NCBI GenBank assembly: GCA_026390735.1
Contig: JAPLFJ010000035.1
Span: forward strand, 1-64,000
Origin: Ignavibacteriota bacterium
GTDB taxonomy: Bacteria; Bacteroidota; Ignavibacteria; Tepidaquicellales; Tepidaquicellaceae
DNA length: 64,000 nucleotides
Direction: 5' to 3'
Below are positions 1,565-24,595 of the stretch, one piece after another; within the stretch, counting starts at the first letter, position 1; every line of letters starts with the position of its first letter. The translations under genes and the position numbers were made by a program. A model generated the notes under the pieces. The model was given only the letters and a program-made list of their open reading frames with translations, ran no database searches and had not been told where the DNA came from.

Positions 1565-4500
1565 ATGAAACAATTTAAACTTACTTTTCTTGTCGTCGCT
1601 TTGATGATGATACTATCCAATGTTGGATGGGGTCAATGGACTTATGATTTTGGGACTGGAACAGGCTCATACGCAATAGCATCTGGAGCATCGACAACAC
1701 TTTTTACTTCAACACCTTCAAATGGGGGTACTTATAGGGTAAGGTGTGCATCAACTGGAAATTTTGGTTCTGGATTTATTTTAGCAAATCCTGGTACCAC
1801 TTTAGGGACTGGAACAGAATTACAAATTAATTCATCTATTACTGGTTCAACTAATAAATTTGGCGTTTACGATTGGACATCCCCAAGTACAGTTGCATAT
1901 ATGAAGTGCAAATTTAGAACCACAAGCACCAATAATGGTACTTTAAACATTAGCTTAGGTGTAAATACATTAGTAAGTGATGCAAATGGTTATACAAGTC
2001 AATATAATAATTCACTTACATCTTTGACAATGACTTATGCTACTGGTTCAATTTCAACAGTCACCAGAAGGATATCCGGTGCAAACTCAACAATATCAGG
2101 CTCAGGATTTTCTAAAGATGCAAACCAAGTGATTGAAATATATGCAAATAATGGTGCTGGTTCTGTTAGTTATTCAAGAAGTGGTTCAAACTATACTTTA
2201 GCAACTAAAACATGGGATTTATGGGTTGATGGAGTTCAGGTTGTTATTAACGCTGCTACAGCAGGAACCCTAGCAGCTGGCACAAATTTAAGTGGTTTTG
2301 GATTTTTTGGTGAAAGTAGTACAGGCAATGCTGCATTTATGTATATTGATGATTTGGAATATTCTAATTCATTACCATTACTGACACCGACTATTACTCT
2401 TGCTTCACTAAATCCTTCTATTGCTGCTGCAAATATTACTCAAGGTACGACAAAAAATTTAATATATAAATTTAATACAGCAGTAAGTACAGATAATGCC
2501 ACAATTAATTCAGTAGCATTTACTACAGGTGGGACTTATGTTGCCGCTGATGTTTCAAAATTTCAATTATGGTATAAAGCAGGTTCGGATGATTTTTCAA
2601 CAGCAACTCAAATTGGTAGTGATATCACTACTTCTTTAGGCACAGGTGTCCATTCATTCTCTTCGCTAACTCAAGTAATAAATAGCGGCACAACAGGATA
2701 TTTTTATATTGCCACTGATGTTCAAGGTTCGGCAACAGTTACTAATTATATTAATGTGTCTGCTATAGCAAGTGCAGACTTAATTTTTGCTTCCGGAAAT
2801 AAATCTGGTACTGCATATGCAGGAGGCAATCAAACGATTATAGTACCAATCACTTCGAATGTCGCTCTATCTTCTCCAAATCCTGCTGTTGCAGCAGGCA
2901 ATATTACACAAAATACTTCGAATAATGTTATTTACCGTTTCGATTTAGCAGTAACTACAGCAGATGCTGTTTTATCCGGATTGCAAATTACAACTGCAGG
3001 GACTTATTCTGCAACTGACTTAACAAATTTGAAAGCATGGTATTCTGCAGATAATACATTCAGTTCAGGAACAGATGTTTTACTTTCAACTAAGACCACT
3101 TCTTTAGGAACAGGGACACAAGTTTTTCCAAGTTTTACAACTCAAACAATTACTGTAGGAACAGCAGGTTACATTTTCATAACAACTGATATACCTTGCG
3201 GAGCTAACGGTAATACAATTTACGTCAGTGCAGTTACAACCTCCGATATAACTTTTCTTGCTGCAAATAAAACAGGAACTGCATATGACGGTGGAACTCA
3301 AACATTCACATATACTGTACCAAATAATGCATCATCATTTGCAGCATCAAATGAAAACTTAAAATCTACATTAACATGGGCAGCTCTAACTGGATGTTAT
3401 AATGATATAATGATAGTAGCAAGTGCTACTGCTTTTACTTCTGCTGTTCCAAGCGGGAACAGTTATGTATTTAATCTAGATTTTACAAGTCCACTAAGTA
3501 CTACATTTGATGGCGGGAAAGTTGTTTACAAAGGGACAGTAAGCCCTGAAACCGTAACAGGATTAACTAACGGAACAACATATAACTTTAAAATCTTTAC
3601 AAGAAACGGTACAAACTGGTCTTCAGGGGTTACAACTACTGCGACTCCGAGCAGTAATAAATATGCTCAAAGTATTATTACCTCATGGGCTACAGGTCCC
3701 TGGTATGATGCGGCAACAGGTGGAAGCACAACAACTGCACCTGGAATAGGTGATAATGTCTTCACGAATGGAAACACAGTGACTGTCGATGCTGATGCTA
3801 CGTGTGATAATCTTACAATAACAAACATAACCGGTGCTATCACGATAAACGATGGGATGACATTGACAGTAAGAGGATTATTGGATTTTACAGCCTCTGT
3901 TACCATTGATGTAATTGGAGGAACGGGTAATGGTACTATTAAATTTACAGGTGCTTCTTTAAACAGTGCACCATATTATGTATTTGGTAGTAATTTAACT
4001 GCTTCCGCTGTTTTTGATAATATTATTTTTTCTTCAGGAGATTTAAGCAAAGAATTAAATACAAATGCGAAACGATTAAAATTTCTCGGGACAATAACTG
4101 TTGAAACAGGAAGTGCTATTCTAAACGGTGACCGTAATTATACAACCGGAGCAAATATTGGTATAGTCACAATAAGCGAGGGAGCGCAGTTAACTCTTTC
4201 AGGTTCAAGTTTTCTTTCCGGCGCGAGTTCTGCTGGAACTAAAATAAATTCAATTAATGTTAATGGGACTTTCATTACATCAAGTGTTATTGATGCGACT
4301 TCTTTAACCATAGGTACAAATGGTTTATTAAAAATTACTAAATCAGGAGATTTTTATACTTCAACACCAACTTTTACATGCAATGGCACAACTGAATATG
4401 GTAACTCTGGTGCACAAAACATTTATGGAACTGTTTATAACAATCTAAAAATTTCAGGATCAGGGACTAAATCACTATCCGGAAACGCCACTGTAAATGG

Positions 4501-5593
4501 AACATTAACTATGACAAGTGGATTGCTTCAACTTTCAACAAATAATTTGACATTAGCTAATGCAGTATCCGGGGCAAGTTCTTCAAGTTATATAGTAACA
4601 AATAGTACAGGAGTTTTGACAATTAATAATATTGGGACTACTGAAACACTATTCCCAGTAGGGACGGCAACGTCATACAATCCTGCATTGATCATAAACA
4701 ATGGTACGGAAGTAGATAATTTTTCTGTAAAAGTTGGTTCTACTTTATCAGGGACACCAGATTTAACCAAAGTTGTTCAAAGACAATGGGATTTGGCGGA
4801 AGCCATCGCTGGCGGTTCAGACGTAACACTAAAGCTTCAATTTATCAATACAGATTGTGGTATTAATTTTGATCCAGCGGGAACAGTACAAATGGGGCAT
4901 TATGTAAGTAATGCTTGGATAGGATTAGATGGTGTAATTACAGGTTCAAATCCATACATATTAACTACAAGCGGCATTACTTCTTTCTCACCATTCTCAG
5001 TTGGGATGCAAGGATCATTACCAGTATCACTTGCAACGTTAAATTCGGCAATTACAGGAAGAAATATTAAATTAAACTGGACTACATCATCGGAACAAAA
5101 CAATGCAGGGTTTAATGTAGAAAGAGTTAAGAGTTTAGAGTCAGGAGTTCAGAGTTGGGAGAAAATAGGATTTATATCAGGTAAAGGAACTGTGAATACA
5201 CCGACGAATTATTCGTTTGAGGACAGGAATTTACAGACAGGAAAGTATAAATACAGACTGAAGCAGATTGACGTGAATGGTAACTTTGAATATTTTGCGC
5301 TGAACGGTGAGGTGGAGATTGGCGTGCCGAAAACATTTAACATGAGCCAGAATTATCCGAATCCGTTTAATCCTGTGACTAAGATTAATTTTGATTTACC
5401 TGAAAATGGTAAGGTTGATTTGAGACTTTATGATATGCTTGGCAGAGAAGTGGCTACACTCGTGAATGAAGTGAGGACGGCGGGGTATTATACTGTAAAC
5501 TTTAATGCATCTTCCCTATCGAGCGGGATTTATTTCTACAGGATGAACGCAGGAAAGTTCAGCAGTATTAAGAAGATGGCAGTTATAAAATAA
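1565..5593 (+). CDS. Giant T9SS-secreted multidomain surface protein (1342 aa)
   Basis: An N-terminal signal peptide (about residues 1–23, ending in GWGQ) precedes a ConA/LamG-like beta region (about 25–270). Two tandem repeats of about 150 residues follow (277–427 and 433–583; each starts near a SxNPxxAAxNITQ motif). After these come a fibronectin III-like segment (about 585–690) and a G8-like strand region around 715–770 with the VTVDADATCDNLTI signature. The C-terminal 180 residues are the PLPVxLxxFxxxxxGRNIKLxW module and the NYPNPFNP sorting domain. It is probably exported by T9SS and anchored or released at the surface; adhesion is inference. The coding sequence contains five heptanucleotide repeats at 5124–5158 (residues about 1187–1198). 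No Shine-Dalgarno is visible, as is usual in this group. Expression is probably monocistronic, with a terminator at 5719. Confidence 0.85.
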   Translation: MKQFKLTFLVVALMMILSNVGWGQWTYDFGTGTGSYAIASGASTTLFTSTPSNGGTYRVRCASTGNFGSGFILANPGTTLGTGTELQINSSITGSTNKFGVYDWTSPSTVAYMKCKFRTTSTNNGTLNISLGVNTLVSDANGYTSQYNNSLTSLTMTYATGSISTVTRRISGANSTISGSGFSKDANQVIEIYANNGAGSVSYSRSGSNYTLATKTWDLWVDGVQVVINAATAGTLAAGTNLSGFGFFGESSTGNAAFMYIDDLEYSNSLPLLTPTITLASLNPSIAAANITQGTTKNLIYKFNTAVSTDNATINSVAFTTGGTYVAADVSKFQLWYKAGSDDFSTATQIGSDITTSLGTGVHSFSSLTQVINSGTTGYFYIATDVQGSATVTNYINVSAIASADLIFASGNKSGTAYAGGNQTIIVPITSNVALSSPNPAVAAGNITQNTSNNVIYRFDLAVTTADAVLSGLQITTAGTYSATDLTNLKAWYSADNTFSSGTDVLLSTKTTSLGTGTQVFPSFTTQTITVGTAGYIFITTDIPCGANGNTIYVSAVTTSDITFLAANKTGTAYDGGTQTFTYTVPNNASSFAASNENLKSTLTWAALTGCYNDIMIVASATAFTSAVPSGNSYVFNLDFTSPLSTTFDGGKVVYKGTVSPETVTGLTNGTTYNFKIFTRNGTNWSSGVTTTATPSSNKYAQSIITSWATGPWYDAATGGSTTTAPGIGDNVFTNGNTVTVDADATCDNLTITNITGAITINDGMTLTVRGLLDFTASVTIDVIGGTGNGTIKFTGASLNSAPYYVFGSNLTASAVFDNIIFSSGDLSKELNTNAKRLKFLGTITVETGSAILNGDRNYTTGANIGIVTISEGAQLTLSGSSFLSGASSAGTKINSINVNGTFITSSVIDATSLTIGTNGLLKITKSGDFYTSTPTFTCNGTTEYGNSGAQNIYGTVYNNLKISGSGTKSLSGNATVNGTLTMTSGLLQLSTNNLTLANAVSGASSSSYIVTNSTGVLTINNIGTTETLFPVGTATSYNPALIINNGTEVDNFSVKVGSTLSGTPDLTKVVQRQWDLAEAIAGGSDVTLKLQFINTDCGINFDPAGTVQMGHYVSNAWIGLDGVITGSNPYILTTSGITSFSPFSVGMQGSLPVSLATLNSAITGRNIKLNWTTSSEQNNAGFNVERVKSLESGVQSWEKIGFISGKGTVNTPTNYSFEDRNLQTGKYKYRLKQIDVNGNFEYFALNGEVEIGVPKTFNMSQNYPNPFNPVTKINFDLPENGKVDLRLYDMLGREVATLVNEVRTAGYYTVNFNASSLSSGIYFYRMNAGKFSSIKKMAVIK

Positions 5594-5663
5594 TTCAGAG
5601 TTCAGAGTTCATCCGCCCAACAAGACGGCGGACGCAAAGAACGCGGAATGATGAATTGAAAAG

Positions 5664-5804
5664 ATTTTTGTGGGATTTGGATGAGGTCCCGCGATTACCC
5701 GGAACATTGGGTTACCCTAAGGCGGACGCCAGTCCGCCTTTTTTTATTTAGAAGAGATTTGTCCCCTGATTTCGCAGATTAAAACAGATTAGAGAAAAGA
5801 ATCC
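5664..5804 (+). repeat. 3'-flank repeat, copy A (pairs with 11237–11376)
   Basis: About 140 bp downstream of this T9SS gene is nearly identical to the region downstream of the next one. It runs from a TTTTTGTGGGATTTGGATGA word through the terminator hairpin to GTCCCCTGATTTCGCAGATT. The 3' flanks were therefore duplicated along with, or exchanged between, the paralogous genes. Confidence 0.85.
5719..5745 (+). terminator. Rho-independent terminator
   Basis: 9-bp perfect stem AAGGCGGAC / GTCCGCCTT with a GCCA loop, then a run of T. It lies 126 bases after the stop of the 1565 gene, inside the duplicated 3' flank. Confidence 0.8.
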
Positions 5805-6575
5805 ACTAATTACGCTAATTAGACGAATTATACGAATTAGAGATTAAAAACCTTTTCCCGCGAAATTCACTAAACACACGAAAAGAGATTAAGAATCCAC
5901 GAATTACGCTAATTAGACGAATTATACGAATTAGAGATAAAAGATAGAGATTTTACCACAGAGGAGAGCAGAGGAGAACAAGAGGCGCACAGAGAAAAGA
6001 TTTTTTTAGGGTTAGAGAAGAGCATATAAACCAATGAATCGGGATTAGAAAAGTAAGATACTTAAGAATGGAACGCGGATGACGCTGAAAGAACGGATTA
6101 TCGCCGATAGAGTTTTTCAGGGTTAGAGATGAGATAGAGATAAAAAACTTTTCCCGCGAAATACACGAAACACACGAAAAGAGAAAAGAATCCACTAATT
6201 ACGCTAATTAGACTAATTATACGAATTAGAGATTAAAAACCTTTTCCCGCGAAATTCACGAAACTCTCGAAAAGAGATTAAGAATCCACTAATTACGCTA
6301 ATTAGACTAATTATACGAATTAGAGATTAAAAACCTTTTCCCACGAAATTCACGAAACTCTCGAAAAGAGATTAAGAAACAATTTTACCACAGAGGAGAG
6401 CAGAGGAAAACAAGAGGCGCACAGAGAAAAGATTTTTTTAGGGTTAGAGAAGAGCATAAATACCGATGAATCGGGATTAGAAAAGTAAGATACTTAAGAA
6501 TGGAACGCGGATGACGCTGAAAGAACGGATTATCGCCGATAGAGTTTTTCAGGGTTAGAGATGAGATAGAGATTA
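5805..6575 (+). repeat. Mosaic block of modular 9-bp-period intergenic repeats
   Basis: Built from shuffled modules. One runs CGAATTA-CGCTAATTA-GACGAATTA, a second has CGCGAAATT-CACGAAACA steps, a third ACCACAGAG-GAGAGCAGAG steps, and a fourth GGATGACGCTGAAAGAACGG. Composite units of about 190 bp occur at 5951–6140 and 6383–6574, and an 88-bp unit is tandemly repeated at about 6184–6360. Open frames across it on the minus strand are low-complexity by-products. The remaining 6576–6960 is AT-rich with no feature I can name. Confidence 0.85.
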
Positions 6576-6960
6576 TTTGTTAGGAATTTATAGAAATCAA
6601 TGAGACAAAAGAGACGGGTAACACAGATGACAATATATCGTGATTTACGATAATATGATACTATTAGCGATTAATAGGTGCGATTATCGTTTATCGATGT
6701 ATATAGGGACAAGTTACAACCGCCATTTAATGTCTTACGAACAAATGATATTATTATATACCGAAATAATAGTAAGATAGTCCTTCCTTCCTTTATTTGT
6801 AGGGATTTCAAGACATTTTTGCTCTCGAGATTTTAATTTACCAATAGAAGAAATTGATTTTGAAAAAAAATAAATGAATATGTTACACAGAAAATATATT
6901 TCTTACCTTGTCACTCCTCTTTTTCTTTCAATATCAATAATAATATTATAATTTCAATCC

Positions 6961-7061: not shown

Positions 7062-7326
7062 TCTTGACAATTCAAACATCGAATGCATAAAAGTAAGTTG
7101 TATATATTTTTATGCATAATTTCCTAAAATCATTAGGGGTGAGCACACCGGCATAATGTCTTCGCATAATTAAATTAATTAACATCAAATTAATATTATG
7201 AAGAAGAATATTACTACGTTCAGAACGAACACCGAAAAAGGGATAACTTCATCCCGCAACTCTATCTATTCAGAGAATAGAATCATCAAATCAAACAATA
7301 AAACAATAAACTTAAATAACAACATT

Positions 7327-10300
7327 ATGAAAAAACTATTTACAATTTTAGTGGTTTTTATTCTTGCTTCTAATTTATTTACCATGAGCTCATTTGCTCA
7401 GGATAAAAATAAAGTAAAGAATGGGTCGAGCAATTCTAGTATAAATATCGATTCAAAGAATATTTTAACACAAAGTGCTAATCTTTCTCCATTCCATAAT
7501 CAAATTCAGAATATTAATAGCCTTCAAAGCACTACGGGGAATCCTACTCCCTTTTCTCCTCAAGCAACAACAGTAACATGTTATCCAAATAGCGGAGCTA
7601 AGAACACTGGTACTGTCAATAGTAGTTCATTTGTTACTACAGATTCTATAGATATACTAAGTGGAGGAGCTTGGGAAGGTTTTGCAAAATTTAATATCAG
7701 TTCTATACCTTCCAATGCTGTTATTACTGCTGTTACTTTTAGTTTATACGTTAATTCTCAAAGTGGTAGTCCATATCATCGTATCATTAAATTATCAAAC
7801 GACCCTGTAACTACTTCAGCCGCAACTTTATATACAAATATCACTACCGGAAGTCAATATGCTGCATTTGGTTCAACTATTCCAACAGGAGCATATTACA
7901 CTTATACATTAACCGGTACTGCTGCCGCAGATGTCCAGGCAGCAATTACTCAAGGATGGTTTGCTCTTGGGATATATGAATATGAATCAGGAACAACTTA
8001 TTCTTTTAATGCATCTGGTTACGGTGCAGCAAATAAGCCATATATCTCAGTAACATATTCAATTCCAACAACATTTACATCTACAGCAACAGGAGGACTA
8101 TGGAGTTCACCAGGCACTTGGGTTAATAATGCAGTTCCTTCAACAACTGATTTTGCAGTTATAACTGCAGGTTCTACTGTAACACTTGATAATACTGTTG
8201 GTGCTACCGTAACTGTAGCTTCACTTGTCGTAAATGGAAATTTAAATTATACAAGCGCCTCTTATGCTTTATATGTTACTGGAACGACCACAGTTAGCGG
8301 AACCGGTTCTTTGAATGATAATGGTGCATACCTTCAAGCATCGGGGAATACAACTATTCAAGACGGTGGGACTCTAAATGTTTACTCAAATGGTGCAAGT
8401 ACTTGTGGTGAATTTATTTTATTTGATGGCGCTACTATGACAGTTGATATAGGTGGTACATTAAATGTTAATAATCAATATGCATCGTACGGATATGTAG
8501 TATTGGGAATAGGTAGTGCTGCAAGTGCAACTTTAACAGTAAATGGAACCCTGAATATTAATACTGTTGCTCCTTCTGGTGCAACTTCTTTTTATACGGG
8601 TTCAACTATTACAGTCAATGGAAAATTAAACTATACACAAGGTGGCTTTAATTATCCATCAACAGCTATAGTTTATGGTGCTTCTGCAACACTTAATTAT
8701 CTGGGTGGGACCGTAAATTCTTCTAACATATGGTGGCCTACAAGTTCATCCCCTTATAATGTAGGAATTAATTCATCCGGAACTATTACACTAAATGGTG
8801 CTAAAACTGTAAATGGGACTTTAACATTAGCAAATGGAACTTTATCGAATGGAACGAACTTAACATTAGGAAATGGTGCAACGATTAACCGTTCAGCAGG
8901 TTCATTATCTGCAGTACCAACATTCGGTTCAAGTGTAAATGTAATATATTCAGGAAGTTCACCAATTTCATCCGGATATGAGATTCCAACTACACCGGGT
9001 GTTTTAAATAATTTAACAACAAATACAGGTGGAGTTGTTCAGTCAGCGATACCAGGTTCAAGTTCAACAGTTGATGCATTAGCACTGCAAAATTTTGAGG
9101 GGGTTACATTTCCACCAACTAGTTGGACCACATCAGGTGGTACAAGTTGGGTAAGAAAAGCAGGAGATGGAAGTTCTACACTTGTAGGAGGAAATGGGAC
9201 TGCTAATAATGCATTTTTTCCACATTCTTCAACAACCTGGCCACAATCATTAATAACTCCTACTTTTGATTGTAGTGATAATACAGGAGCAGTAACATTG
9301 GCGTTTTATTATAATAGTAATAGGTCGTCTTCAGGCGGATCAGGTTCATCTTATGATCCGTTTACCGTTTATGCGTCAACAGATGGAGGAAATAATTGGA
9401 CAAGCATAATGACCAATAATACTCGTCAAAATGGCTGGACGCAGAAATCAATTACCTTAAGTAGTGGATTTGGTCTTACAATGACAAATAATATGAAAAT
9501 TAGGTTTGAAGCAACCAGTAAAGGAACTTATTCAAATTGTATGGGAAACTGTGTAGATGAAGTGAAAGTAACAAAACAAACAACTGGTGCATCTACTCCT
9601 TCAACCATAACGGTTAACGGTATATTTGATTTAACAAGTGGTAGCCTTAACATAGGCGCAAACAATCTTGTTTTAAATGGTGGTATTTCAGGCAGCAGTG
9701 CAATAGTTGGAGGATCAACAAGTGACTTAAGTGTCGGAGGTTCTGGTTTAAACATTTCGTTACCTTCAATCACAAATGGACTGCACGATTTTATAATTAA
9801 CAGAACTGACGGGGTTACACTATCTAGTAACCTTTTGATTAATGGCTCACTGAACCTAACAAATGGAAATATTTATATGGGGTCAAGCACATTGACATTA
9901 GGGACCGATATAACATATACGGGGACATTAAATCCTTCGGTACCGACATCAGGTTCATATATAGTTGGAAGTTTTGAGAGATGGATTCCTGCTTCAACAA
10001 CATCGGCTATATACTTCCCTGTAGGTTCAGCAGGACAATTCAGACAGGCAATAATAACATTTACGGCAGCACCATCAGGCGGGAAACTTAAAGTTAGCGG
10101 ATTCGATACGGATCCGGGAACAACAACTACCAATACATCCCTTACTGAATCAGGAGGGAGTAATTATGTGATTGACAGATATTCACAAGAAGCATGGTGG
10201 AATGTCACTCCTTCCGGTTTTAATAACGGGACATATGATATTTCACTTCAGGTATATAATATAAGCGGAGTTAGTATAGTAAACTATTCACAGTTAAGAG

Positions 10301-11061
10301 TGCTAAAAAGAGAAACAAGTTCACCTGACTGGGCTTTGGTCGGGTCACATGTAAATGCTTCAGGAACTGTTGAAGGTTCAACTGTAAAAAATATAACTGT
10401 TAACAGAACAGGCTTAAGTGGTTTTTCAGATTTCGGTATTGGCGGTTACAGCGTTGATGGGAATGTTCTGAACAATGCACCACTTCCGGTTCTATTATCA
10501 TCATTCTCATCTGTACTTAAAGGACATGATGTTAACTTAACCTGGAAGACAGACAGAGAAACAAACAATGCAGGATTTGATGTTGAAAGAAAATCAGAAG
10601 GAAGTAATTTATGGAATAAGGTTGGATATGTTAAAGGCAAGGGCTCGACGAATTCTCCTGCAAGCTATACTTTTGAGGATAAAAAACTTAACAGCGGGAA
10701 ATACAACTATCGTCTGAAGCAGATTGATTATAATGGTAACTTTGAATATCATAATCTTGCAACGATAGTGGATGTTGCATTACCGACAAAGTTTAACTTA
10801 AGTCAGAATTATCCAAATCCGTTTAATCCGACTACGAAGATAGACTTTGATTTACCGTTTGACAGTAAGGTGAATATAGTTCTGTATGATATGACGGGAA
10901 GAGAAGTGAAGACACTCGTAAACGAAACAAGAACTGCTGGATATTATACTGTGCAGTTTAATGCTGCGGATTTATCGAGCGGTATGTACTTCTACAGGAT
11001 TATAACCAAGTCTTCGGGTAAGGATTTTGTGATGACGAAGAAGATGATGCTGGTGAAATAG
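7327..11061 (+). CDS. Giant T9SS-secreted adhesin-like protein (1244 aa from the chosen start)
   Basis: I chose ATG 7327 because it opens a textbook signal peptide (MKKLFTILVVFILA…SFAQ). The upstream in-frame ATG at 7198 would add 43 polar residues in front of it. An early DNRLRE-like/CBM domain follows (FAKFNISSIPSNAVITAVTF). A G8-like strand segment comes next (GLWSSPGTWVNN…STVTLDNTVGATV), then long Gly/Thr/Ser-rich beta-solenoid stretches. Among these is one copy of the ~85-residue repeat found twice in the 16973 protein (NGTLTLANGTL…INRSAGSL). A MAM/jelly-roll-like insert lies around FEGVTFPPTSW…VDEVKV. The C-terminus carries the PLPVLLSSF module and an NYPNPFNP sorting domain. It lacks the heptamer insertion seen in three paralogues. 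Confidence 0.82.
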   Translation: MKKLFTILVVFILASNLFTMSSFAQDKNKVKNGSSNSSINIDSKNILTQSANLSPFHNQIQNINSLQSTTGNPTPFSPQATTVTCYPNSGAKNTGTVNSSSFVTTDSIDILSGGAWEGFAKFNISSIPSNAVITAVTFSLYVNSQSGSPYHRIIKLSNDPVTTSAATLYTNITTGSQYAAFGSTIPTGAYYTYTLTGTAAADVQAAITQGWFALGIYEYESGTTYSFNASGYGAANKPYISVTYSIPTTFTSTATGGLWSSPGTWVNNAVPSTTDFAVITAGSTVTLDNTVGATVTVASLVVNGNLNYTSASYALYVTGTTTVSGTGSLNDNGAYLQASGNTTIQDGGTLNVYSNGASTCGEFILFDGATMTVDIGGTLNVNNQYASYGYVVLGIGSAASATLTVNGTLNINTVAPSGATSFYTGSTITVNGKLNYTQGGFNYPSTAIVYGASATLNYLGGTVNSSNIWWPTSSSPYNVGINSSGTITLNGAKTVNGTLTLANGTLSNGTNLTLGNGATINRSAGSLSAVPTFGSSVNVIYSGSSPISSGYEIPTTPGVLNNLTTNTGGVVQSAIPGSSSTVDALALQNFEGVTFPPTSWTTSGGTSWVRKAGDGSSTLVGGNGTANNAFFPHSSTTWPQSLITPTFDCSDNTGAVTLAFYYNSNRSSSGGSGSSYDPFTVYASTDGGNNWTSIMTNNTRQNGWTQKSITLSSGFGLTMTNNMKIRFEATSKGTYSNCMGNCVDEVKVTKQTTGASTPSTITVNGIFDLTSGSLNIGANNLVLNGGISGSSAIVGGSTSDLSVGGSGLNISLPSITNGLHDFIINRTDGVTLSSNLLINGSLNLTNGNIYMGSSTLTLGTDITYTGTLNPSVPTSGSYIVGSFERWIPASTTSAIYFPVGSAGQFRQAIITFTAAPSGGKLKVSGFDTDPGTTTTNTSLTESGGSNYVIDRYSQEAWWNVTPSGFNNGTYDISLQVYNISGVSIVNYSQLRVLKRETSSPDWALVGSHVNASGTVEGSTVKNITVNRTGLSGFSDFGIGGYSVDGNVLNNAPLPVLLSSFSSVLKGHDVNLTWKTDRETNNAGFDVERKSEGSNLWNKVGYVKGKGSTNSPASYTFEDKKLNSGKYNYRLKQIDYNGNFEYHNLATIVDVALPTKFNLSQNYPNPFNPTTKIDFDLPFDSKVNIVLYDMTGREVKTLVNETRTAGYYTVQFNAADLSSGMYFYRIITKSSGKDFVMTKKMMLVK

Positions 11062-11376: not shown

Positions 11377-12290
11377 GCGAATTACGCTAATTAGACTAAT
11401 TATACGAATTAGAGATTAAGAACCTTTTCCCGCGAAATACACGAAACTCTCGAAAAGAGAAAAGAATCCGCGAATTACGCTAATTAGACGAATTATACAG
11501 TTACGAGTGAAAACGTGCATCCGCCACTGCGGAGCAAGAAAAGATAAAAGAAGAAATGGCACACTGATAAAAGACGATTAGAGCTGATTTTCACTGATTG
11601 TTTTTTAGGGTTAAAGATAAGAAAAGATAATTCTGGTTTACCAGCGTAGACGAATTAGAGATAAAAAACTTTTCCCGCGAAATACACGAAACTCTCGAAA
11701 AGAGAAAAGAATCCGCGAATTACGCTAATTAGACGAATTATACGAATTAGAGATTAAAGATAGAGATTTTACCACAGAGGAGAGCAGAGGAGAACTTAGC
11801 GCACAGAGAAAAGATTTTTTTAGGGTTAGAGAAGAGCATATAAACCAATGAATTGGGATTAGAAAAGTAAGAAGTTTAAGAATGGAACGCGGATGACGCT
11901 GAAAGAACGGATTATCGCCGATAGAGATTTTCAGGGTTAGAGATGAGCAAAAATACCGATGAATCGGAATTAGAAAAGTAAGAAACTTAAAAATGGAACG
12001 CGGATGACGCGGAAAGAACGGATTATCGCCGATAGAGTTTTTCAGGGTTAGAGACGAGATAGAGATTAAGAGCTTTTACCACAAATCCTCAAAAAGAATC
12101 CGCGAATTACGCGAATTAGACTAATTATACGAATTAGAGATTAAGAAACTTTTCCCGCGAAATTCACGAAACACACGAAAAGAGAAAAGAATCCGCGAAT
12201 TACGCGAATTAGACGAATTATACGAATTAGAGATTAAAAAACTTTTCCCGCGAAATACATCCGCCCAATAAGATGGCGGACTCACCAAGG
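11377..12290 (+). repeat. Mosaic block of modular intergenic repeats
   Basis: Same modules as 5805–6575. A composite ~180-bp unit lies at 11767–11947 and a shorter one follows to 12066. The CCGCCCAATAAGATGGCGGA word at about 12260 recurs at 5609, 14540 and 26445. The ~150-bp element at 11498–11648 sits inside a CGAATTA-type module. No gene is supported between 11062 and 12401. Confidence 0.85.
11498..11648 (+). repeat. 150-bp interspersed element, copy 1
   Basis: Begins CAGTTACGAGTGAAAACGTG and ends CTGGTTTACCAGCGTA. It contains a TCCGC / GCGGA hairpin near the start and a CTGGT / ACCAG palindrome at the end. Other copies are at 13267–13416, 20578–20725 and (reverse, diverged) 52640–52807. 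It encodes nothing obvious. Confidence 0.8.
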
Positions 12291-12401
12291 CGGGCGAAAG
12301 ACATGAGATTTACTGAATAGATAATATTGGATTTCTGATATATATTGAAACAATTTGAGTGATAATGCAGTATATTAATAAAATTAAACATTATTTATAA
12401 T

Positions 12402-13416: not shown

Positions 13417-14525
13417 GACGAATTAGAGATTAAGAACCTTTTCCCGCGAAATTTACGAAACACTCGAAAATAGAAAAGAATCCGCTAATTAGACGAATTA
13501 GACTAATTAAACGAATTAGAGCTTTTTTCCCGCGAAATTCACGAAACACACGAAAAGAGATAAAAGATAAAAACTTTACCACAGAGGAGAGCAGAGGAAA
13601 ACAAGAGGCCACAGAGAAGAGATTTTTCAGGGTTAGAGATGAGCATATAAACCAATGAATCGGAATTAGAAAAGTAAGAAGTTTAAGAATGGAACGCGGA
13701 TGACGCTGAAAGAACGGATTATCGCCGATAGAGTTTTTCAGGGTTAGAGATGAGATAGAGATAAAAAACTTTTCCCGCGAAATTCACGAAACTCTCGAAA
13801 AAAGAAAAGAATCCACGAATTACGCTAATTAGACTAATTAAACGAATTAGAGATAAAAGATAAATACTTTACCACAGAGGAGAGCAGAGGAAAACAAGAG
13901 GCCACAGAGAAGAGATTTTTCAGGGTTAGAGATGAGCATATAAACCAATGAATCGGGATTAGAAAAGTAAGAAGTTTAAGAATGGAACGCGGATGACGCT
14001 GAAAGAACGGATTACCGCCGATAGAGATTTTCAGGGTTAGAGATGAGATAGAGATAAAAAACTTTTCCCGCGAAATACACTAAACACTCGAAAAGAGAAA
14101 AGAATCCACGAATTACGCTAATTAGACTAATTATACGAATTAGAGATTAAGAAACTTTTCCCGCGAAATACACTAAACTCTCGAAAAGAGAAAAGAATCC
14201 ACGAATTACGCGAATTTGACTAATTATACGAATTAGAGATTAAGAAACTTTTCCCGCGAAATTCACGAAACACACGAAAAGAGAAAAGAATCCACGAATT
14301 ACGCGAATTTGACTAATTATACGAATTAGAGATAAAAGATAAAAACTTTACCACAGAGGAGATCAGAGGAAAACAAGAGGCCACAGAGAAGAGATTTTTC
14401 AGGGTTAGAGATGAGCATAAATACCGATGAATTGGGATTAGAAAAATAAGAAGTTTAAGAATGGAACGCGGATGACGCTGAAAGAACGGATTACCGCCGA
14501 TAGAGTTTTTCAGGGTTAGAGATGA
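13417..14525 (+). repeat. Largest mosaic block of modular intergenic repeats
   Basis: Three composite units (13573–13760, 13868–14055, 14347–14524) each run in the order ACCACAGAGG module, AATGAATCGGGATTAG module, GGAACGCGGATGACG module. Between them are CGCGAAATT and CGAATTA modules, repeated nearly verbatim around 14100–14340. The block fills the space between convergent genes and shows no coding sequence. Confidence 0.85.
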
Positions 14526-16972: not shown

Positions 16973-19900
16973 ATGAAAACATTTATTACATTTCTATTGG
17001 TGCTGGCAATTGTAATTTGTTTTTTGCCAAATGATTCCTGGGGGCAGGAGAAAAGTCAGGAACAAAATTCAATTCAGAAAAATGTTCAAAGCGATAAGGA
17101 TATTGGGAATCAACAGGTAATAACATCTGCATTACCAATCAATAATGAGATTATAAGGATATCTGAACCACCAATAAATGCGCCACTTGCGAATAGAACG
17201 GCTACAGTTTCAGGGAACTGGAGTGACAGGGCTACGTGGGGCGGATCATCCGTTCCGGTGGCTGGAGACATTGTAACAATTAATTCCGGTATAACAGTGA
17301 CAGTGGATGTTGCAGCTGCTTGTGCATCAATAACTTTTGCCGCAGTAAATGCAAATTCCACTATTACAATCAGCGGCACTAATTCACTTACAGTATCAGG
17401 GCTGGTTACAATGCCAAGACCTGCAACAGGTTTTTCCTGTACAATTAACGTAAATGCAGGAACAGCCTCTTTTGGTTCTCTTACAATGTCTGCTACAACT
17501 ATTGGAAGAAATGATGTAATAAATATAACTACAGGGACACTGACTATTTCAGGAGCAATAACAACAGGAACTACAGGATGTCAAATTAATCTAACAGGCG
17601 CAGGGACTTTTAATATTGGTGGTTCATCAAATCTTTTCCTGACATTGCCCACTGTCTCTGGAAGCACAGTAAACTATACAGGTACTTCAGCACAAAATAT
17701 TTACCCTATTACATATCAGGGAAACCTTGGACTATCAGGTGCAGGGACTAAAACTATTTCAAACGGAGTATATGCAGCAAATACAGTAGTAGTCAATGGT
17801 AGCGTTACTAATAGTTCTACTCTTGTTCTCTCGGCAGGAACTAGTTCTTTGAGTACAATGATTATTATGGGAGGTAATGTAACAAATACGGGTACGATTA
17901 CTTCAACCGGGGCCTACACTAGATTTTATTTTGGTTCTGCAAATGCTCAAACATTCACAAATAACGGCACGGTGACTTCCCCTGTTGCCAGCTTCGATTT
18001 AGCAAACACAAATGCATCAGGGCTGACATTGACAGGTAATGGTTTTAATGTAACTCGTGCCAATCTGTTTTATGGAACAGTAGTAAACTCTAATAAAATT
18101 ACTCTAGGAACTGGAGGTGTTTCAACAGCTGTTGTTCAAAGAGGTGTTGCAACAAACACTTCACCGGCAGGAAGATTTGATGTTGCACCGGCATTTAATG
18201 TTGGGAGCGGCGGATTAAATTTATTATATGACAATGGTTCGGTTGCATATAATACAGGTTTCGAAGTTCCGAGTTCTTCAATATGTAATTTATTTTATAT
18301 TTTTGACGCAGCTGATGTAACTCTTAATACAAATCTTACTGTATCAAGCGTATTAAATTTCGTTGGCGGGACAGGTACTCCAACTTTAAGAATCGGAGCA
18401 AATACTTTAACTATAGGCGGAGTGATCACATATACAGTTGCTGGTGCATTCTACGGAGGAACAACATCAAATCTTGTAATGAATGGTGCTACTACAGTTA
18501 ATTCAATACTAAATGGATTAAATAACTTTACAATAAATGCAAATACAACATTAGGTGGGGCTGTAACTGTCAATGGTACATTAACACTTACAAACAGAAC
18601 TCTGACCAATGGAGCAAATCTTACTATGGCTTCAGGTTCGACTATTTCAAGAGATGTGGGCACATTAGGTTCTTCCCCAACTTTTGCAGGAACTGTGAAT
18701 TTGATTTATACAGGAACTACAGGAGTAACTACAGGGAATGAAAAGTCAACATCTTCAGGTGTCATAAATAATTTTATAGTAAATAAATCGGGTGGAGTTA
18801 CTTTGGCTTCTGCTGCTCAGGTAAACGGAACGTTGTTTTTAACAAACGGAACACTTACTAACGGAACATATTTAGTAATGGCTAATGGTTCAACTGTAAA
18901 CCGTGCAGACGGGACACTATCTTTGGCTCCTGCTTTTGGAACATCTGTAAATTTAATATATTCGGGTACAAATCCAATTACTACAGGAGTTGAAAATCCT
19001 GTTTCTTCATCAGTATTGAATAATTTAACGATTAATAACACAGGTGGAATTACACTTGGCTCAAATACTACAGTTAATGGTTCAACAACTTTATCAGGCG
19101 GATTATTAAAGACAACATCGAGTTATGCTTTATACTTTGGGACTACGGCAATATCACCATCTGAAGATTGCGGTGCATACATTGAAGGCACGGCTGTTAT
19201 GAATCAAAGGAGTGCTGGGATTAATGCATTAGATTTCTTAAACTGTTTTATTCATACGGGAGCAAATATCGGGGATGTAACAGTTACAAGAGTTACAGGA
19301 ACTGACGGAATAATAACTGCGAACGGAAACAGCGGGATAGCCGCGAACTGGGATATTGTAACAACCATTCCATTGGGTACAGGAGTAACAAAAGATGTCA
19401 CTTACAGCTGGCCTTGCGATCTTGATAACGAACATCCATTTGCACCATCAATATTAGCACAATTATATTACGTAAATGGTACTGCACTTGAACCTGTTGG
19501 AGCAGGTGTGGATGTTTCAGGATCAGACCCACGGAATATTACCGTTGCGCATTCACACTTTTCAAAATACACTATCGGCTCTTCTGATGCACCTTTACCA
19601 GTTCGCCTTTCATCTTTCACATCTTCACCAAGAGGAAGGAATGTATTACTTGACTGGGTAACAGCATCGGAAATAAACAATGCGGGATTTGAGATTGAGA
19701 GAGTTAAGAGTTCTGAGTTAAGAGTTAAGAATTGGGAAAAGATAGGATACCTGCAGGGAAAAGGGACTGTTAATACTCCGACAAAATATACTTTTGAGGA
19801 TAAGAATCTGCAGACCGGTAAGTATCAATACAGATTAAAGCAAACAGATAACAACGGTAACTTTGAATACTTTGCATTGAACGGCGAAGTGGAAGTTGGT

Positions 19901-20170
19901 GTACCTAATAAGTTTAACCTGAGCCAGAACTATCCGAATCCGTTTAATCCGAATACAGTTATCAGTTTTCAGTTGCCCGTTGATAGTAAGGTTAGTTTAG
20001 TGATTTATGATATAAGAGGAAAAGAAGTTAAGACTTTACTTAGTGAAGTAAGGACTGCAGGATATTATACTGTTCCGTTTAATGGTTCTGAATTTGCAAG
20101 CGGAATTTACTTATACAGGATAACGGTCGACAAGTATGTGATGACTAAAAAGATGATGCTTGTGAAATAG
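16973..20170 (+). CDS. Giant T9SS-secreted repetitive adhesin-like protein (1065 aa)
   Basis: Signal peptide of about 25 residues ending in SWGQ. A G8-like entry domain lies at residues 80–122 (GNWSDRATWGG…VTINSGITVTVD). A Thr/Gly/Asn-rich beta-solenoid follows, including two consecutive ~85-residue repeats (about 532–616 and 617–700; VNGTLxLTNxTLTNG … LIYxGTxxxTTG). The C-terminal module starts at PLPVRLSSF (about 875) and the sorting domain at LSQNYPNPFNP (about 983). Residues 910–920 are encoded by a heptanucleotide repeat (19701–19735). The 3' 500 bp is almost identical to that of the 20790 gene, which implies recent exchange. It is probably an exported surface or matrix protein; no catalytic motif is visible. 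Confidence 0.85.
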   Translation: MKTFITFLLVLAIVICFLPNDSWGQEKSQEQNSIQKNVQSDKDIGNQQVITSALPINNEIIRISEPPINAPLANRTATVSGNWSDRATWGGSSVPVAGDIVTINSGITVTVDVAAACASITFAAVNANSTITISGTNSLTVSGLVTMPRPATGFSCTINVNAGTASFGSLTMSATTIGRNDVINITTGTLTISGAITTGTTGCQINLTGAGTFNIGGSSNLFLTLPTVSGSTVNYTGTSAQNIYPITYQGNLGLSGAGTKTISNGVYAANTVVVNGSVTNSSTLVLSAGTSSLSTMIIMGGNVTNTGTITSTGAYTRFYFGSANAQTFTNNGTVTSPVASFDLANTNASGLTLTGNGFNVTRANLFYGTVVNSNKITLGTGGVSTAVVQRGVATNTSPAGRFDVAPAFNVGSGGLNLLYDNGSVAYNTGFEVPSSSICNLFYIFDAADVTLNTNLTVSSVLNFVGGTGTPTLRIGANTLTIGGVITYTVAGAFYGGTTSNLVMNGATTVNSILNGLNNFTINANTTLGGAVTVNGTLTLTNRTLTNGANLTMASGSTISRDVGTLGSSPTFAGTVNLIYTGTTGVTTGNEKSTSSGVINNFIVNKSGGVTLASAAQVNGTLFLTNGTLTNGTYLVMANGSTVNRADGTLSLAPAFGTSVNLIYSGTNPITTGVENPVSSSVLNNLTINNTGGITLGSNTTVNGSTTLSGGLLKTTSSYALYFGTTAISPSEDCGAYIEGTAVMNQRSAGINALDFLNCFIHTGANIGDVTVTRVTGTDGIITANGNSGIAANWDIVTTIPLGTGVTKDVTYSWPCDLDNEHPFAPSILAQLYYVNGTALEPVGAGVDVSGSDPRNITVAHSHFSKYTIGSSDAPLPVRLSSFTSSPRGRNVLLDWVTASEINNAGFEIERVKSSELRVKNWEKIGYLQGKGTVNTPTKYTFEDKNLQTGKYQYRLKQTDNNGNFEYFALNGEVEVGVPNKFNLSQNYPNPFNPNTVISFQLPVDSKVSLVIYDIRGKEVKTLLSEVRTAGYYTVPFNGSEFASGIYLYRITVDKYVMTKKMMLVK

Positions 20171-20177
20171 GCAACAG

Positions 20178-20577
20178 GAAGTAGGGTGTAGGAAGTAAGA
20201 AGTAGGAAGTAAGAAGTAGGAAGTAGGAAGTAGGAAGTAAGAAGTAGGAAGTAAGAAGTAGGAAGTATGAAGTAGGAAGTAGGAAGTAAGAAGTAGGAAG
20301 TAAGAAGTAGGAAGTAAGAAGTAGGAAGTAAGAAGTAGGAAGTAGGAAGTAGGAAGTAAGAAGTAAGAAGTAGGAAGTATGAAGTAGGAAGTATGAAGTA
20401 GGAAGTAGGAAGTAGGAAGTAAGAAGTAGGAAGTAAGAAGTAGGAAGTAAGAAGTAGGAAGTAGGAAGTAGGAAGTAGGAAGTAGGAAGTAGGAAGTAGG
20501 AAGTAGGAAGTAGGAAGTAGGAAGTAGGAAGTAAGAAGTAGGAAGTAAGAAGTAGGAAGTATGAAGTAGGAAGTAGA
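20178..20577 (+). repeat. Heptanucleotide minisatellite (GAAGTAG/GAAGTAA/GAAGTAT)
   Basis: About 57 tandem 7-mers starting eight bases after the stop of the 16973 gene. The seventh base varies among G, A and T. Because three heptamers make 21 bases, several frames stay open on the minus strand, encoding runs such as LLPTSYF; these are not genes. Length polymorphism by slippage is expected. Confidence 0.95.
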
Positions 20578-20789: not shown

Positions 20790-23700
20790 ATGAAAAAGAT
20801 AATTATAACATTTGTTTTGCTGTTGAATGTAATTGTAAGTATATCTTTTTCTCAGGAAACAAGAGGGTTAAATGGTGATGTAGTAACACCGTATGTATTT
20901 AAGATGACTGATTTGCAATCATTTGGCGATGTGTATCTTGGCACAACTCCAAAAAGAACTTTTAATGAAGTAGAACCCCCTTACGCACCTGAGTTTCCAA
21001 CCCCTGATGCAAGAAATATTTCTAATTTCACTTATGACAAAAGTGCGAATAATCCTGCACCTTTTGCACCGGTTACAGGAACAAACTTTGAAGGAATTGC
21101 ACAAAACGGATATATTCCAAGCGAACCACAGCCTGCAGCAGGACCAGATCATATATTAATACTCGGAAATGTATCCGTAAAAATTGCAGATAAAAACGGT
21201 AACTCACTCAGCAATGTTTTGCAGACTGCATTTTTCAATATACCCATTGCCGAAGGAGCAGGATTTGATGCAAAATGCTTTTATGACTACAGAAGAAGAA
21301 GATTTGTTGCGTTATGCGAGACTCAAACATCAAGTCCTGCAGTTTGCAAATACTATCTTGCTATATCTGCTACATCAAATGCTATGGGAACCTGGTATGT
21401 TTATTCTTTTGACATGACTAAAGACGGGACAACACAGACTGCTAACTGGTCAGACTTTCCCGGTCTTGGAATAAGTGATGATAAGTTAGTAATGAGCGGA
21501 CAACAATTTACTTTTTCAGGGAATTCCTATCAGTATCAGAAATTAAGAATAATTGACAGAGCACTTGCATATTCAGGTGCAGCACTAACTTTTACAGATA
21601 TAGTAAACTGGTCAGGTCAGGTATTTGTTACAAAACCAGGGAGGAATATGAGTGCCGGTAATGACATTTATATTCTTGCTACAACTTACAGCGGAGGGAC
21701 GACTGTTGAATTCAGAACATTAACAGGAGCACCTGCCTCCCCTGTACTATCCGCCGCTACTAACATAAATGTAAATGCTTATGGTATTCCTCCTGATGCC
21801 CCCGGAGGCAGCAGGTCTGCTACAGTAAACACTGGTGACAGCAGAACATCAGATTTTTTCGTAAGAAACGGAGTTTTGAACATTGCTTTCCATATAGGGA
21901 CTACTATTTCAGGAACGAATGTCTCTGCAATAAAATTTTTAAGAATTGCTGTTAACCCTTTGAATACAACACCATTGACTGATGAAACGTATGGAGCAGC
22001 AAGCACTTATTATTATTATCCGATGGTATGCGTTGATTCTGCAGGTACTATGTTTATGGGATTCGGGAAATCGTCAAGGACTGAGTATCCTTCATCTTAC
22101 ATTACAGGAAAAAGAAGAGGTGACGCAACAATCCAATCAAGTGTTTTAGCAAAGTCCGGCATTGCTGTAACAAGCCAAACCCGTTGGGGAGATTATACAG
22201 GAATAGATATGGATGAATCTGCTACAAACCCCGGAGGGTCTTATGCCTGGTATTCAGGGCAGTATACTAAAGCTGCTGCTACTTTCGGAACCTGGGTAAC
22301 ACAATTGAATTTTACCTACGGTCAGATTCGTGGACAGGTAGTTAATGATGCAGACGGAGATGTAACAACCACAGGCGACAGGACTGCAGTTACAGGTGCG
22401 ACAGTATTACTGAAACAAGGCACGGCAACTATTGATACTAAAATAACTGATGCATCGGGTAATTATAATTTCGGGTATCTTGAGACTGCCACAAATTACA
22501 GCGTTGTTTTTGCTCCCCCATCGGGAAAACACTCTGTAGATGTAATGACAGGAACCGGCGGAACTACTCAAACGAAAACGGATTATAAAACGATTGCAGT
22601 TAACCTAACAAATTCACAAACTTCTACGGGAAACACTTATATAGTAAGTGACTGGCTGAACTCAGTAGCAACAGGTAACTGGAACAGCACATCAGCCTGG
22701 AAAGACAATGTTACCCCTGTTAATACTGATAAAATCCTTATCAATTCAGGACATACTATTACCGTAAATTCAAACTATACTTGTAACAGCATTAAAGATA
22801 ATGGTGTGTTACAATTTGATAATGTCTCTTCATGGTTACTTACAATCAGTTCAAACCTGATACTGAATAATCAAATCATTGTGCTTGGCAATAATAATAT
22901 TAATGTCGGAGGGACAATATCAGGTGCGGGTCCAGGTGCTTACATTTCAACCGGAGGAACGGGGAAATTAAAATGTACAGTTAACAATAACAATACTTTT
23001 GTACTCTTCCCCATCGGAAGAACTGCATACAACCCTATCAGCATAAAACTAAGCCCGGCTTCAACTTCGGATGCATTTTCAGTGCTGGTTAAAAATGCTG
23101 TATCATACCCCGGGCCTAATCCTGCCAGTACAGTAGCAAGAGAATGGGATATCAGCGAGGGGACATCAGGCGGTTCATATGCAACGATTGAATTTAATTT
23201 CAATACAGGGGAAGGATTAACTAATTTTACATCAGGGCAAATAGGACACTGGAATGGCACCTCCTGGGATGCAATAGCTGCAAATATATCAGGTGCAGGA
23301 CCATATAAGATTACAAGTATTCAGGAAATAACAAGTTTCTCGCCTTTTATTGTTGGTAATGAAGCCCCTTTACCTGTAACCATTTCCAGCCTGACTTCTA
23401 TTATTTCAGGCAGAAATATAAACCTGAAATGGATAACAGCATCGGAAATAAATAATGCGGGATTCGAGATTGAGAGAGTTAAGAGTTATGAGTTAAGAGT
23501 TAAGAATTGGGAAAAAATTGGATATGTACAGGGCAAAGGGACTGTGAATATTCCGACAGATTATTCTTTTGAGGACAAGAATCTGCAGACAGGAAAGTAT
23601 CAGTACAGATTGAAGCAAATAGATAACAATGGTAACTTTGAATATTTTGCCTTGAACGGTGAAGTAGAAATTGGTGTACCGATGAAATTCGAACTGAGCC

Positions 23701-23945
23701 AGAATTATCCGAATCCGTTTAATCCGAACACAGTTATCAGTTTTCAGTTGCCCGTTGACAGTAAGGTTAGTTTAGTGATTTATGATATAAGAGGAAAAGA
23801 AGTTAAGACTCTGTTTAGTGAAGTAAGGACTGCAGGATATTATACAGTTCCGTTTAATGGTTCTGAATTTGCAAGTGGAGTTTATTTATACAGGATAACT
23901 ACTGATAATTTTATAAAGACAAAGAAGATGGTCCTTGTTAAATAG
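20790..23945 (+). CDS. T9SS-secreted protein with beta-propeller-like and SdrD/CnaB-like domains (1051 aa)
   Basis: Signal peptide (about 1–21, ending in SFSQ). Residues ~100–510 form a region with sialidase/propeller-like features (AGPDHILILGNVSVKIADKNG, FYDYRRRRFVALCE, WSDFPGLGISDDKLVMS). A CnaB/SdrD B-like domain follows (IRGQVVNDADGDV … SGNYNFGYL). A G8-like segment comes next (VATGNWNSTSAWKDN … HTITVNSNYTC), then the PLPVTISSL module and the NYPNPFNP sorting domain. The heptamer repeat lies at 23476–23510. The gene starts 33 bases after the interrupted heptamer tract, so promoter spacing may depend on that tract. No catalytic residues are recognised. Confidence 0.83.
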   Translation: MKKIIITFVLLLNVIVSISFSQETRGLNGDVVTPYVFKMTDLQSFGDVYLGTTPKRTFNEVEPPYAPEFPTPDARNISNFTYDKSANNPAPFAPVTGTNFEGIAQNGYIPSEPQPAAGPDHILILGNVSVKIADKNGNSLSNVLQTAFFNIPIAEGAGFDAKCFYDYRRRRFVALCETQTSSPAVCKYYLAISATSNAMGTWYVYSFDMTKDGTTQTANWSDFPGLGISDDKLVMSGQQFTFSGNSYQYQKLRIIDRALAYSGAALTFTDIVNWSGQVFVTKPGRNMSAGNDIYILATTYSGGTTVEFRTLTGAPASPVLSAATNINVNAYGIPPDAPGGSRSATVNTGDSRTSDFFVRNGVLNIAFHIGTTISGTNVSAIKFLRIAVNPLNTTPLTDETYGAASTYYYYPMVCVDSAGTMFMGFGKSSRTEYPSSYITGKRRGDATIQSSVLAKSGIAVTSQTRWGDYTGIDMDESATNPGGSYAWYSGQYTKAAATFGTWVTQLNFTYGQIRGQVVNDADGDVTTTGDRTAVTGATVLLKQGTATIDTKITDASGNYNFGYLETATNYSVVFAPPSGKHSVDVMTGTGGTTQTKTDYKTIAVNLTNSQTSTGNTYIVSDWLNSVATGNWNSTSAWKDNVTPVNTDKILINSGHTITVNSNYTCNSIKDNGVLQFDNVSSWLLTISSNLILNNQIIVLGNNNINVGGTISGAGPGAYISTGGTGKLKCTVNNNNTFVLFPIGRTAYNPISIKLSPASTSDAFSVLVKNAVSYPGPNPASTVAREWDISEGTSGGSYATIEFNFNTGEGLTNFTSGQIGHWNGTSWDAIAANISGAGPYKITSIQEITSFSPFIVGNEAPLPVTISSLTSIISGRNINLKWITASEINNAGFEIERVKSYELRVKNWEKIGYVQGKGTVNIPTDYSFEDKNLQTGKYQYRLKQIDNNGNFEYFALNGEVEIGVPMKFELSQNYPNPFNPNTVISFQLPVDSKVSLVIYDIRGKEVKTLFSEVRTAGYYTVPFNGSEFASGVYLYRITTDNFIKTKKMVLVK

Positions 23946-24463: not shown

Positions 24464-24571
24464 TGTTTCCCTGGTGCCGTCCGTTGTTTTCCTATATATT
24501 TCCTATAGCTTCCATATACCTTGCCTATAGCTTCCATATACCTCGCCTATTGCTTCCCTATTGCCGCCTAT
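24464..24571 (+). repeat. 11-bp degenerate tandem repeat
   Basis: About ten units of 10–11 bp, most ending in CCTAT or CATAT (for example AGCTTCCATAT at 24507 and 24529; ACCTTGCCTAT at 24518). Six consecutive units at 24496–24561 are exactly 11 bp, close to one helical turn. It lies just beyond the 3' end of the minus-strand gene at 24596. Confidence 0.8.
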
Positions 24572-24595
24572 TGGAATTCTCCGTAAATGAGGTTT

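What the first reader, a model, noticed from the sequence alone, without database searches (positions are those of the whole stretch)
19701..19735. Heptanucleotide repeat inserted in frame into the C-terminal module of T9SS genes
Three paralogues carry five tandem 7-mers of GAGTTAA type inside the coding sequence: 5124–5158, 19701–19735 and 23476–23510. All sit at the same spot, between the conserved NNAGFxxER and W(E/N)KxGY motifs. The 7327 protein has the same flanks without the repeat, and its loop is three residues shorter. Three heptamers are 21 bases, so copy changes in threes keep the frame; other changes would break export by removing the sorting domain. This looks like a mobile or expanding short repeat that uses a surface loop, and a possible phase switch for secretion.
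Basis: partly seen in the sequence, partly recalled or inferred. Interest (0 to 1): 0.72.

Follow-up and report, generated by a model that had tools for sequence, protein, structure and literature searches.

The report
Genome repeats captured in secreted-protein loop
In a whole class of environmental bacteria (Ignavibacteria), short repeats that normally litter the DNA between genes have again and again landed, in frame, in one and the same surface loop of secreted proteins, so non-coding repeat DNA is turned into variable protein sequence at a fixed place; it does not look like an on/off switch.

Summary
The arrays are real, at the stated coordinates (four good heptamers plus a degenerate fifth that contains the conserved Trp codon). 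They sit in the tip of a beta-hairpin of the FnIII-like module that precedes the T9SS sorting domain. The phenomenon is much wider than the finding. In the same genome other paralogues carry different heptamers at this loop (AGGCAAT, TCAGAAT, AGAATTT). Across Ignavibacteria the loop holds other heptamer families or REP-type palindromes, and for the elements I traced, further copies lie in intergenic DNA of the same genome. Of 173 loops from 86 genomes, 172 are in frame. Seven-nt periodicity occurs in 33 loops and strong hairpins in 18; in an 83-loop subset, periodicity was absent from 246 control windows. Codons where a perfect heptamer array would read a stop are substituted in all 15 such loops. 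Best explanation: recurrent in-frame capture of dispersed repeats in a tolerant loop, kept by purifying selection on frame. This resembles Rickettsia palindromic elements, but with heptamers as well and at one shared site. A phase switch is weakly supported: one paralogue has lost exactly one heptamer and is frameshifted ahead of its sorting domain, but every other loop is in frame. How repeats arrive is not shown.

The parts
1565..5593 (+). secreted protein gene, T9SS type A sorting domain (1342 aa)
   Evidence: PF18962 43.6 bits, TIGR04183 41.6 bits, both above cut-off
5124..5158 (+). GAGTTAA-type heptamer array in the hairpin loop (loop proper 5126-5155, W codon 5156-5158)
5594..5611 (+). 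TTCAGAG x2.6 array directly after the stop codon of this gene
7198..11061 (+). T9SS gene with the same flanks and an ordinary loop
10591..10611 (+). ordinary 21-nt loop (KSEGSNL), no repeat
16973..20170 (+). T9SS gene (1065 aa)
19701..19735 (+). GAGTTAA heptamer array in the hairpin loop (loop proper 19703-19732); codon TCT at 19712-19714 stands where a perfect array would read TAA
20176..20576 (.). intergenic array of 57 AGGAAGT heptamers, starting 6 nt after the stop codon
20723..20754 (.). second short AGGAAGT-type array upstream of the next T9SS gene
20790..23945 (+). T9SS gene (1051 aa)
23476..23510 (+). GAGTTAA heptamer array in the hairpin loop (loop proper 23478-23507); codon TAT at 23487-23489 in place of TAA

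Best explanation
The arrays are dispersed, normally intergenic repeats that were captured in frame in the C-C' hairpin loop of the FnIII-like module before the T9SS sorting domain. The loop tip tolerates almost any stop-free, in-frame insert of about 8-18 residues, so insertions that would be purged elsewhere survive here. Each lineage therefore fills it with whichever repeats it has: heptamers, or REP-type palindromes in either orientation. Purifying selection then keeps the frame and removes stop codons. Shown: location, diversity of elements, intergenic copies, frame and stop avoidance, recurrence on the tree. Inferred: arrival by copying from intergenic copies (template switching or gene conversion, or transposase-driven for REPs), and exposure of the loop on the exported protein. 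An occasional one-unit loss abolishes the sorting domain (one case), as a rare mutation rather than a regulated switch.
For: Own genome: about 26 paralogues with four different heptamer families or ordinary loops at the same site. Class-wide: loops hold genome-specific heptamers or palindromes. 7- and 14-nt periodicity has z about 10 in loops and is absent from control windows of the same genes: 18/83 loops against 0/246 windows. Strong hairpins (-11 kcal/mol or lower): 7/83 against 1/246. Frame: 172/173, 150/150, 51/52 (the exception is L015 again). Same elements intergenic in the same genome: G541 five intergenic and two in loops; G111 four in loops, in both orientations, and one clearly intergenic; G630 three in loops, at least five intergenic, two in frame in other proteins. 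In 0.86 Mb of the own genome all 9 credible in-frame lag-7 arrays lie in FnIII-type loops: 4 in the T9SS module, 5 in two giant fn3 proteins. Stop positions substituted in 15/15 loops. Minimum 37 state changes on a 166-row tree built without the loop. Close paralogues with about 90% identical downstream flanks and unrelated inserts (L279/L280). Loop = residues 40-48 between strands 17-39 and 49-60.
Against: No orthologous filled/empty pair in closely related strains was found; the one ortholog search gave only about 31% identity. Target-site duplications or boundaries could therefore not be defined, and in-situ slippage cannot be excluded for the heptamers. The tree has few well-supported forks (15 of 163 starred), so the number of independent gains is approximate. 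Many long loops (about 87 of 138) show neither detectable periodicity nor a hairpin.
Confidence: 0.78

Rival explanations
1. Phase-variable switch: the heptamer copy number changes by slippage and turns export or cell attachment on and off by moving the sorting domain out of frame.
For: L015 (C43) carries three AGGCAAT-type units where L006/L007 carry four: exactly -7 bp, with a stop six codons after the array and the intact sorting domain in another frame. The unit length is not divisible by 3.
Against: Every other loop is in frame: 172/173, 150/150 and 51/52. Arrays are short and degenerate (56-97% identity to their own consensus) with purged stops. Palindromic inserts at the same site cannot slip in this way. 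L015 may be a pseudogene or an assembly error.
Confidence: 0.1
2. An ordinary, vertically inherited loop: the repeats are old coding sequence shared by descent, and the 7-nt period is a by-product of codon usage.
For: L001 and L002, or L006 and L007, share a repeat family and are close on the tree. Some long loops in f2 genomes are ordinary and conserved (L061, L062, L064, L078).
Against: Codon-shuffled controls keep codon usage and still give z about 10 at lags 7 and 14 only. Different repeat families occur in near-identical paralogues, the same element occurs in both orientations (G111), and copies lie in intergenic DNA.
Confidence: 0.03
3. A directed or adaptive diversification system: insertion is targeted to this loop, or variants there are positively selected, so that repeats feed a hypervariable exposed loop.
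For: One loop is used class-wide. Sister paralogues with 92-94% identical flanks have unrelated loops (L017/L019). Weak continuation of the heptamer phase into both flanks (p 0.02 and 0.04), as microhomology would give.
Against: No enzyme or target motif was identified. Inserts also occur in other tolerant places: BC-type fn3 loops, an epimerase and a Type ISP enzyme. Simple tolerance explains the data with fewer assumptions.
Confidence: 0.09

Closest known systems
Rickettsia palindromic elements (RPEs) and intragenic REPs (PMC3733652, PMC3767692)
   Same: Dispersed palindromic repeats inserted in frame in ORFs; copies also intergenic; the TGTC/ATGAC-ended palindromes here look like their short CGTC-tagged form
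   Different: RPEs are 100-150 bp and lie in many unrelated Rickettsia/Wolbachia genes, with orthologues sharing the insertion; here inserts are 24-54 nt, heptamers are included, and one homologous loop of many paralogues is used across a class of Bacteroidota
CGTC-tagged REP families (PMC3733652)
   Same: The G630, G576 and G158 elements have a TGTC end, an 8-bp stem beginning with AT and a 5-nt loop, as described for the variants of this superfamily
   Different: Concentrated at one protein loop; other palindromes here (CCCCCTT..AAGGGGG, GCACAGATT..AATCTGTGC) lack the tag
Heptameric simple sequence repeats / STRR (PMC4692102, PMC4679880)
   Same: Seven-nt direct repeats, mixed families, mostly intergenic
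   Different: In those reports the repeats are mainly intergenic and were not described as recurrently translated at a defined protein loop
Phase-variable contingency loci (slipped-strand SSRs, PMC2651432)
   Same: Unit not divisible by three upstream of an essential C-terminal domain; one frameshifted copy seen
   Different: Arrays are degenerate, stop-purged and in frame almost everywhere

Membership tests
T9SS type A sorting-domain proteins (host genes) | Por_Secre_tail at the C terminus above curated cut-off | tested here: met
   all four window proteins pass PF18962 and TIGR04183
Rickettsia palindromic elements | repeat inserted in frame in an ORF without destroying it | tested here: met
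Rickettsia palindromic elements | palindromic, 100-150 bp | tested here: not met
   inserts are 24-54 nt; many are heptamers without any palindrome
Rickettsia palindromic elements | Rickettsia or Wolbachia host | tested here: not met
   named relatives are Ignavibacteria
CGTC-tagged REPs (palindromic subset only) | CGTC/TGTC/CCTC end, 8-9 bp stem starting AT, 4-5 nt loop | tested here: met
   TGTC-ATTCTGAA-CTTGT-TTCAGAAT (G630/G576) and TGTC-ATTCCGGA-CTTGA-TCCGGAAT (G158), sequences, definition; not met by the other palindromes
CGTC-tagged REPs (palindromic subset only) | association with a transposase (RAYT or similar) | not tested
   no search was made
Heptameric SSR / STRR | tandem 7-nt units, several dispersed loci per genome, mainly intergenic | tested here: met
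   7 nt is the most frequent short array period in 0.86 Mb; intergenic loci plus loop copies
Contingency (phase-variation) locus | out-of-frame states common among loci or strains | tested here: not met
   1 of 173 loops; the single case is L015
Contingency (phase-variation) locus | copy number varies within a clonal population | not testable with these tools
   no reads are held

The most novel reading that the evidence does not exclude
The hairpin loop is an actively diversified hypervariable site of Ignavibacterial secreted proteins: the cell's pool of intergenic repeats serves as a donor library that is copied into it, through microhomology or a REP transposase, generating new exposed peptides without a reverse-transcriptase diversifier.
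Probability: 0.12. Interest if true: 0.88.

Novelty: new variant of a known kind. Interest (0 to 1): 0.64.

Why it matters
It is a natural, replicated experiment on how non-coding repeats become protein. For Rickettsia elements it is unsettled whether shared insertion sites are hotspots for inserts of different origin or one old insert that diverged (stated in PMC3767692); here the inserts at one homologous site plainly come from unrelated repeat families, so a hotspot, most simply made by structural tolerance, can be studied directly. It also shows translated heptamers, with stops purged, across a bacterial class, and explains unalignable stretches in T9SS modules.

Tried and rejected
An ortholog search for an empty site with the N-terminal part of the 20790 protein gave only about 31% identical relatives. 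Rfam: nothing but a tRNA. Three apparent coding arrays (C43:27546, C65:20181, C65:20723) were rejected as chance antisense ORFs over intergenic arrays. Microhomology at the borders was tested and is only weak. Several paper searches for a description of this phenomenon in T9SS proteins or Ignavibacteria found none; the library is incomplete. A general association of arrays with stop codons was checked: only 2 of 11 intergenic arrays start within 30 nt of one, so it was dropped as a rule.

Full report
OBSERVATION. The three arrays lie exactly where stated. Each is four GAGTTAA-type units and a degenerate fifth that contains the conserved Trp codon. They are inside three genes whose products pass the T9SS sorting-domain cut-offs. 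The fourth gene, 7198-11061, has the same flanks and a 7-residue loop. The length difference is 9 nt, so the repeat replaced loop sequence.

THE SAME GENOME. A search of the window's genome (4.02 Mb, 69 contigs) with the C-terminal 192 residues found about 26 paralogues with the whole module. At the same loop they carry GAGTTAA (four genes), AGGCAAT (three), TCAGAAT or TTCAGAA (three) or AGAATTT (one) heptamers; the rest have ordinary or weakly periodic loops. A survey of 0.86 Mb of this genome found 7 nt to be the most frequent short array period. After discarding three spurious antisense ORFs, nine arrays are in frame in genes. All nine lie in FnIII-type loops: four in the T9SS loop and five between FKW/FNW and YWFE of two giant proteins for which Pfam finds fn3 domains. 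The other arrays are intergenic.

THE CLASS. Named records with the module are Ignavibacteria. Pattern searches that allow any loop length show that long loops in other genomes hold other heptamers (AGTAAGC, GGCAATA, AGTCAGA, TAGGAAT, CAGTC-type, GTCAAAA, AATTACA and more) or palindromes typical of intergenic repeats, such as GATTCTGAAACAAGTTCAGAATGACA, TGTCATCCTGAGCCCGTCGAAGGATGACA, CCCTTCCCAAAGGGAAGGG and GCACAGATTTCTAATCTGTG. In G111 one palindrome occurs in both orientations (L291 and L292). From all loci I assembled 173 distinct loops from 86 genomes, 138 of them at least 24 nt long. Of these, 33 show 7-nt periodicity at p<0.01 (16 genomes) and 18 show strong hairpins (12 genomes). In an earlier set of 83 long loops, lags 7 and 14 alone stood out (z about 10) against codon-shuffled controls. 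Windows of the same genes at +60, +150 and -150 gave 0 of 246 significant against 18 of 83 in the loop. Hairpins of -11 kcal/mol or lower: 7 of 83 against 1 of 246.

ORIGIN. The elements I traced also lie between genes. In G541 one palindrome has five intergenic copies and two in T9SS loops. In G111 it has four loop copies and one clearly intergenic copy; a sixth lies under a short doubtful ORF. In G630 it has three loop copies, at least five intergenic copies, and two in frame elsewhere: in an NAD-dependent epimerase and in a Type ISP specificity domain. So the T9SS loop is the main recipient, not the only one. A tree built without the loop needs at least 37 changes of repeat state for 166 rows (few forks are well supported). 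Paralogues with about 90% identical downstream flanks can carry unrelated inserts (L279/L280), and L001/L002 share 97% of the loop with 70% and 86% in the flanks.

SELECTION. Frame is kept in 172 of 173 loops, 150 of 150 spans listed, and 51 of 52 short loops. For 15 of 33 heptamer loops a perfect array would hold an in-frame stop, 19 positions in all; every one is substituted, for example TAA to TAT, TCT or TTA in the three window genes. The predicted structure (24 sequences, mean pLDDT 88) puts the loop at residues 40-48 between two long strands, with locally lower confidence. Foldseek finds FnIII domains and PorU. Exposure on the exported protein is inferred from this.

PHASE SWITCH. L015 (C43:32080-32135, minus strand) has 23 nt between Arg and Trp codons where L006 and L007 have 30. 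The frame shifts and a stop follows in six codons; the sorting domain remains open in another frame. This shows what losing one unit would do. It is one case, possibly a pseudogene or an assembly error, and no population data are at hand. I therefore rate a regulated switch at about 0.1.

COMPARISON. The nearest known phenomenon is in-frame insertion of RPEs and REPs (PMC3733652, PMC3767692). Part of the palindromes fit the CGTC/TGTC REP description. RPE membership fails on size and host. Heptameric repeats are known as mainly intergenic features (PMC4692102, PMC4679880). I found no report of heptamers and REPs recurrently translated at one homologous loop, within a library that is incomplete. 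Hence 'new variant of a known kind'.

LIMITS. No filled and empty orthologue pair was found, so the arrival mechanism is inferred. Most genomes are MAGs. Long loops with neither periodicity nor a hairpin may be ordinary or decayed inserts. The class-wide searches use one sequence pattern and list only part of the matches.

Noticed in passing
window 5600-6600, 11380-12300, 13480-14350: Intergenic blocks of dispersed 94-, 111- and 293-bp repeats built from 9-mers such as CACGAATTA and from ACCACAGAGGAGAGCAGAGG; a further repeat family of this genome.
   Followed up: no
window 20176-20576: 57 AGGAAGT heptamers starting 6 nt after the stop codon of a T9SS gene; similar arrays directly follow stop codons of other T9SS genes (C1:9671, C58:136822).
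   Followed up: partly
L374:3764-8650 and L367:8193-17129: Giant fn3 proteins with dockerin-like (one also cohesin) matches whose fn3 loops hold long heptamer-encoded stretches, (RTTDNKQ)n, with two heptamer families side by side.
   Followed up: partly
L148:847-1950 and L149:377-1771: In-frame TGTC-type REP inside an NAD-dependent epimerase and, twice, inside a Type ISP specificity domain in genome G630.
   Followed up: partly
L024 (own genome C42:2496-3020): A T9SS paralogue that lacks the NNAGFxxER strand through an in-frame deletion next to the loop.
   Followed up: no
own genome: At least 150 places match the T9SS C-terminal region, an unusually large secreted repertoire for 4 Mb.
   Followed up: no
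window 24491-24573: Array of an 11/22-bp unit, CCTATAGCTTCCATATACCTCG, between genes.
   Followed up: no
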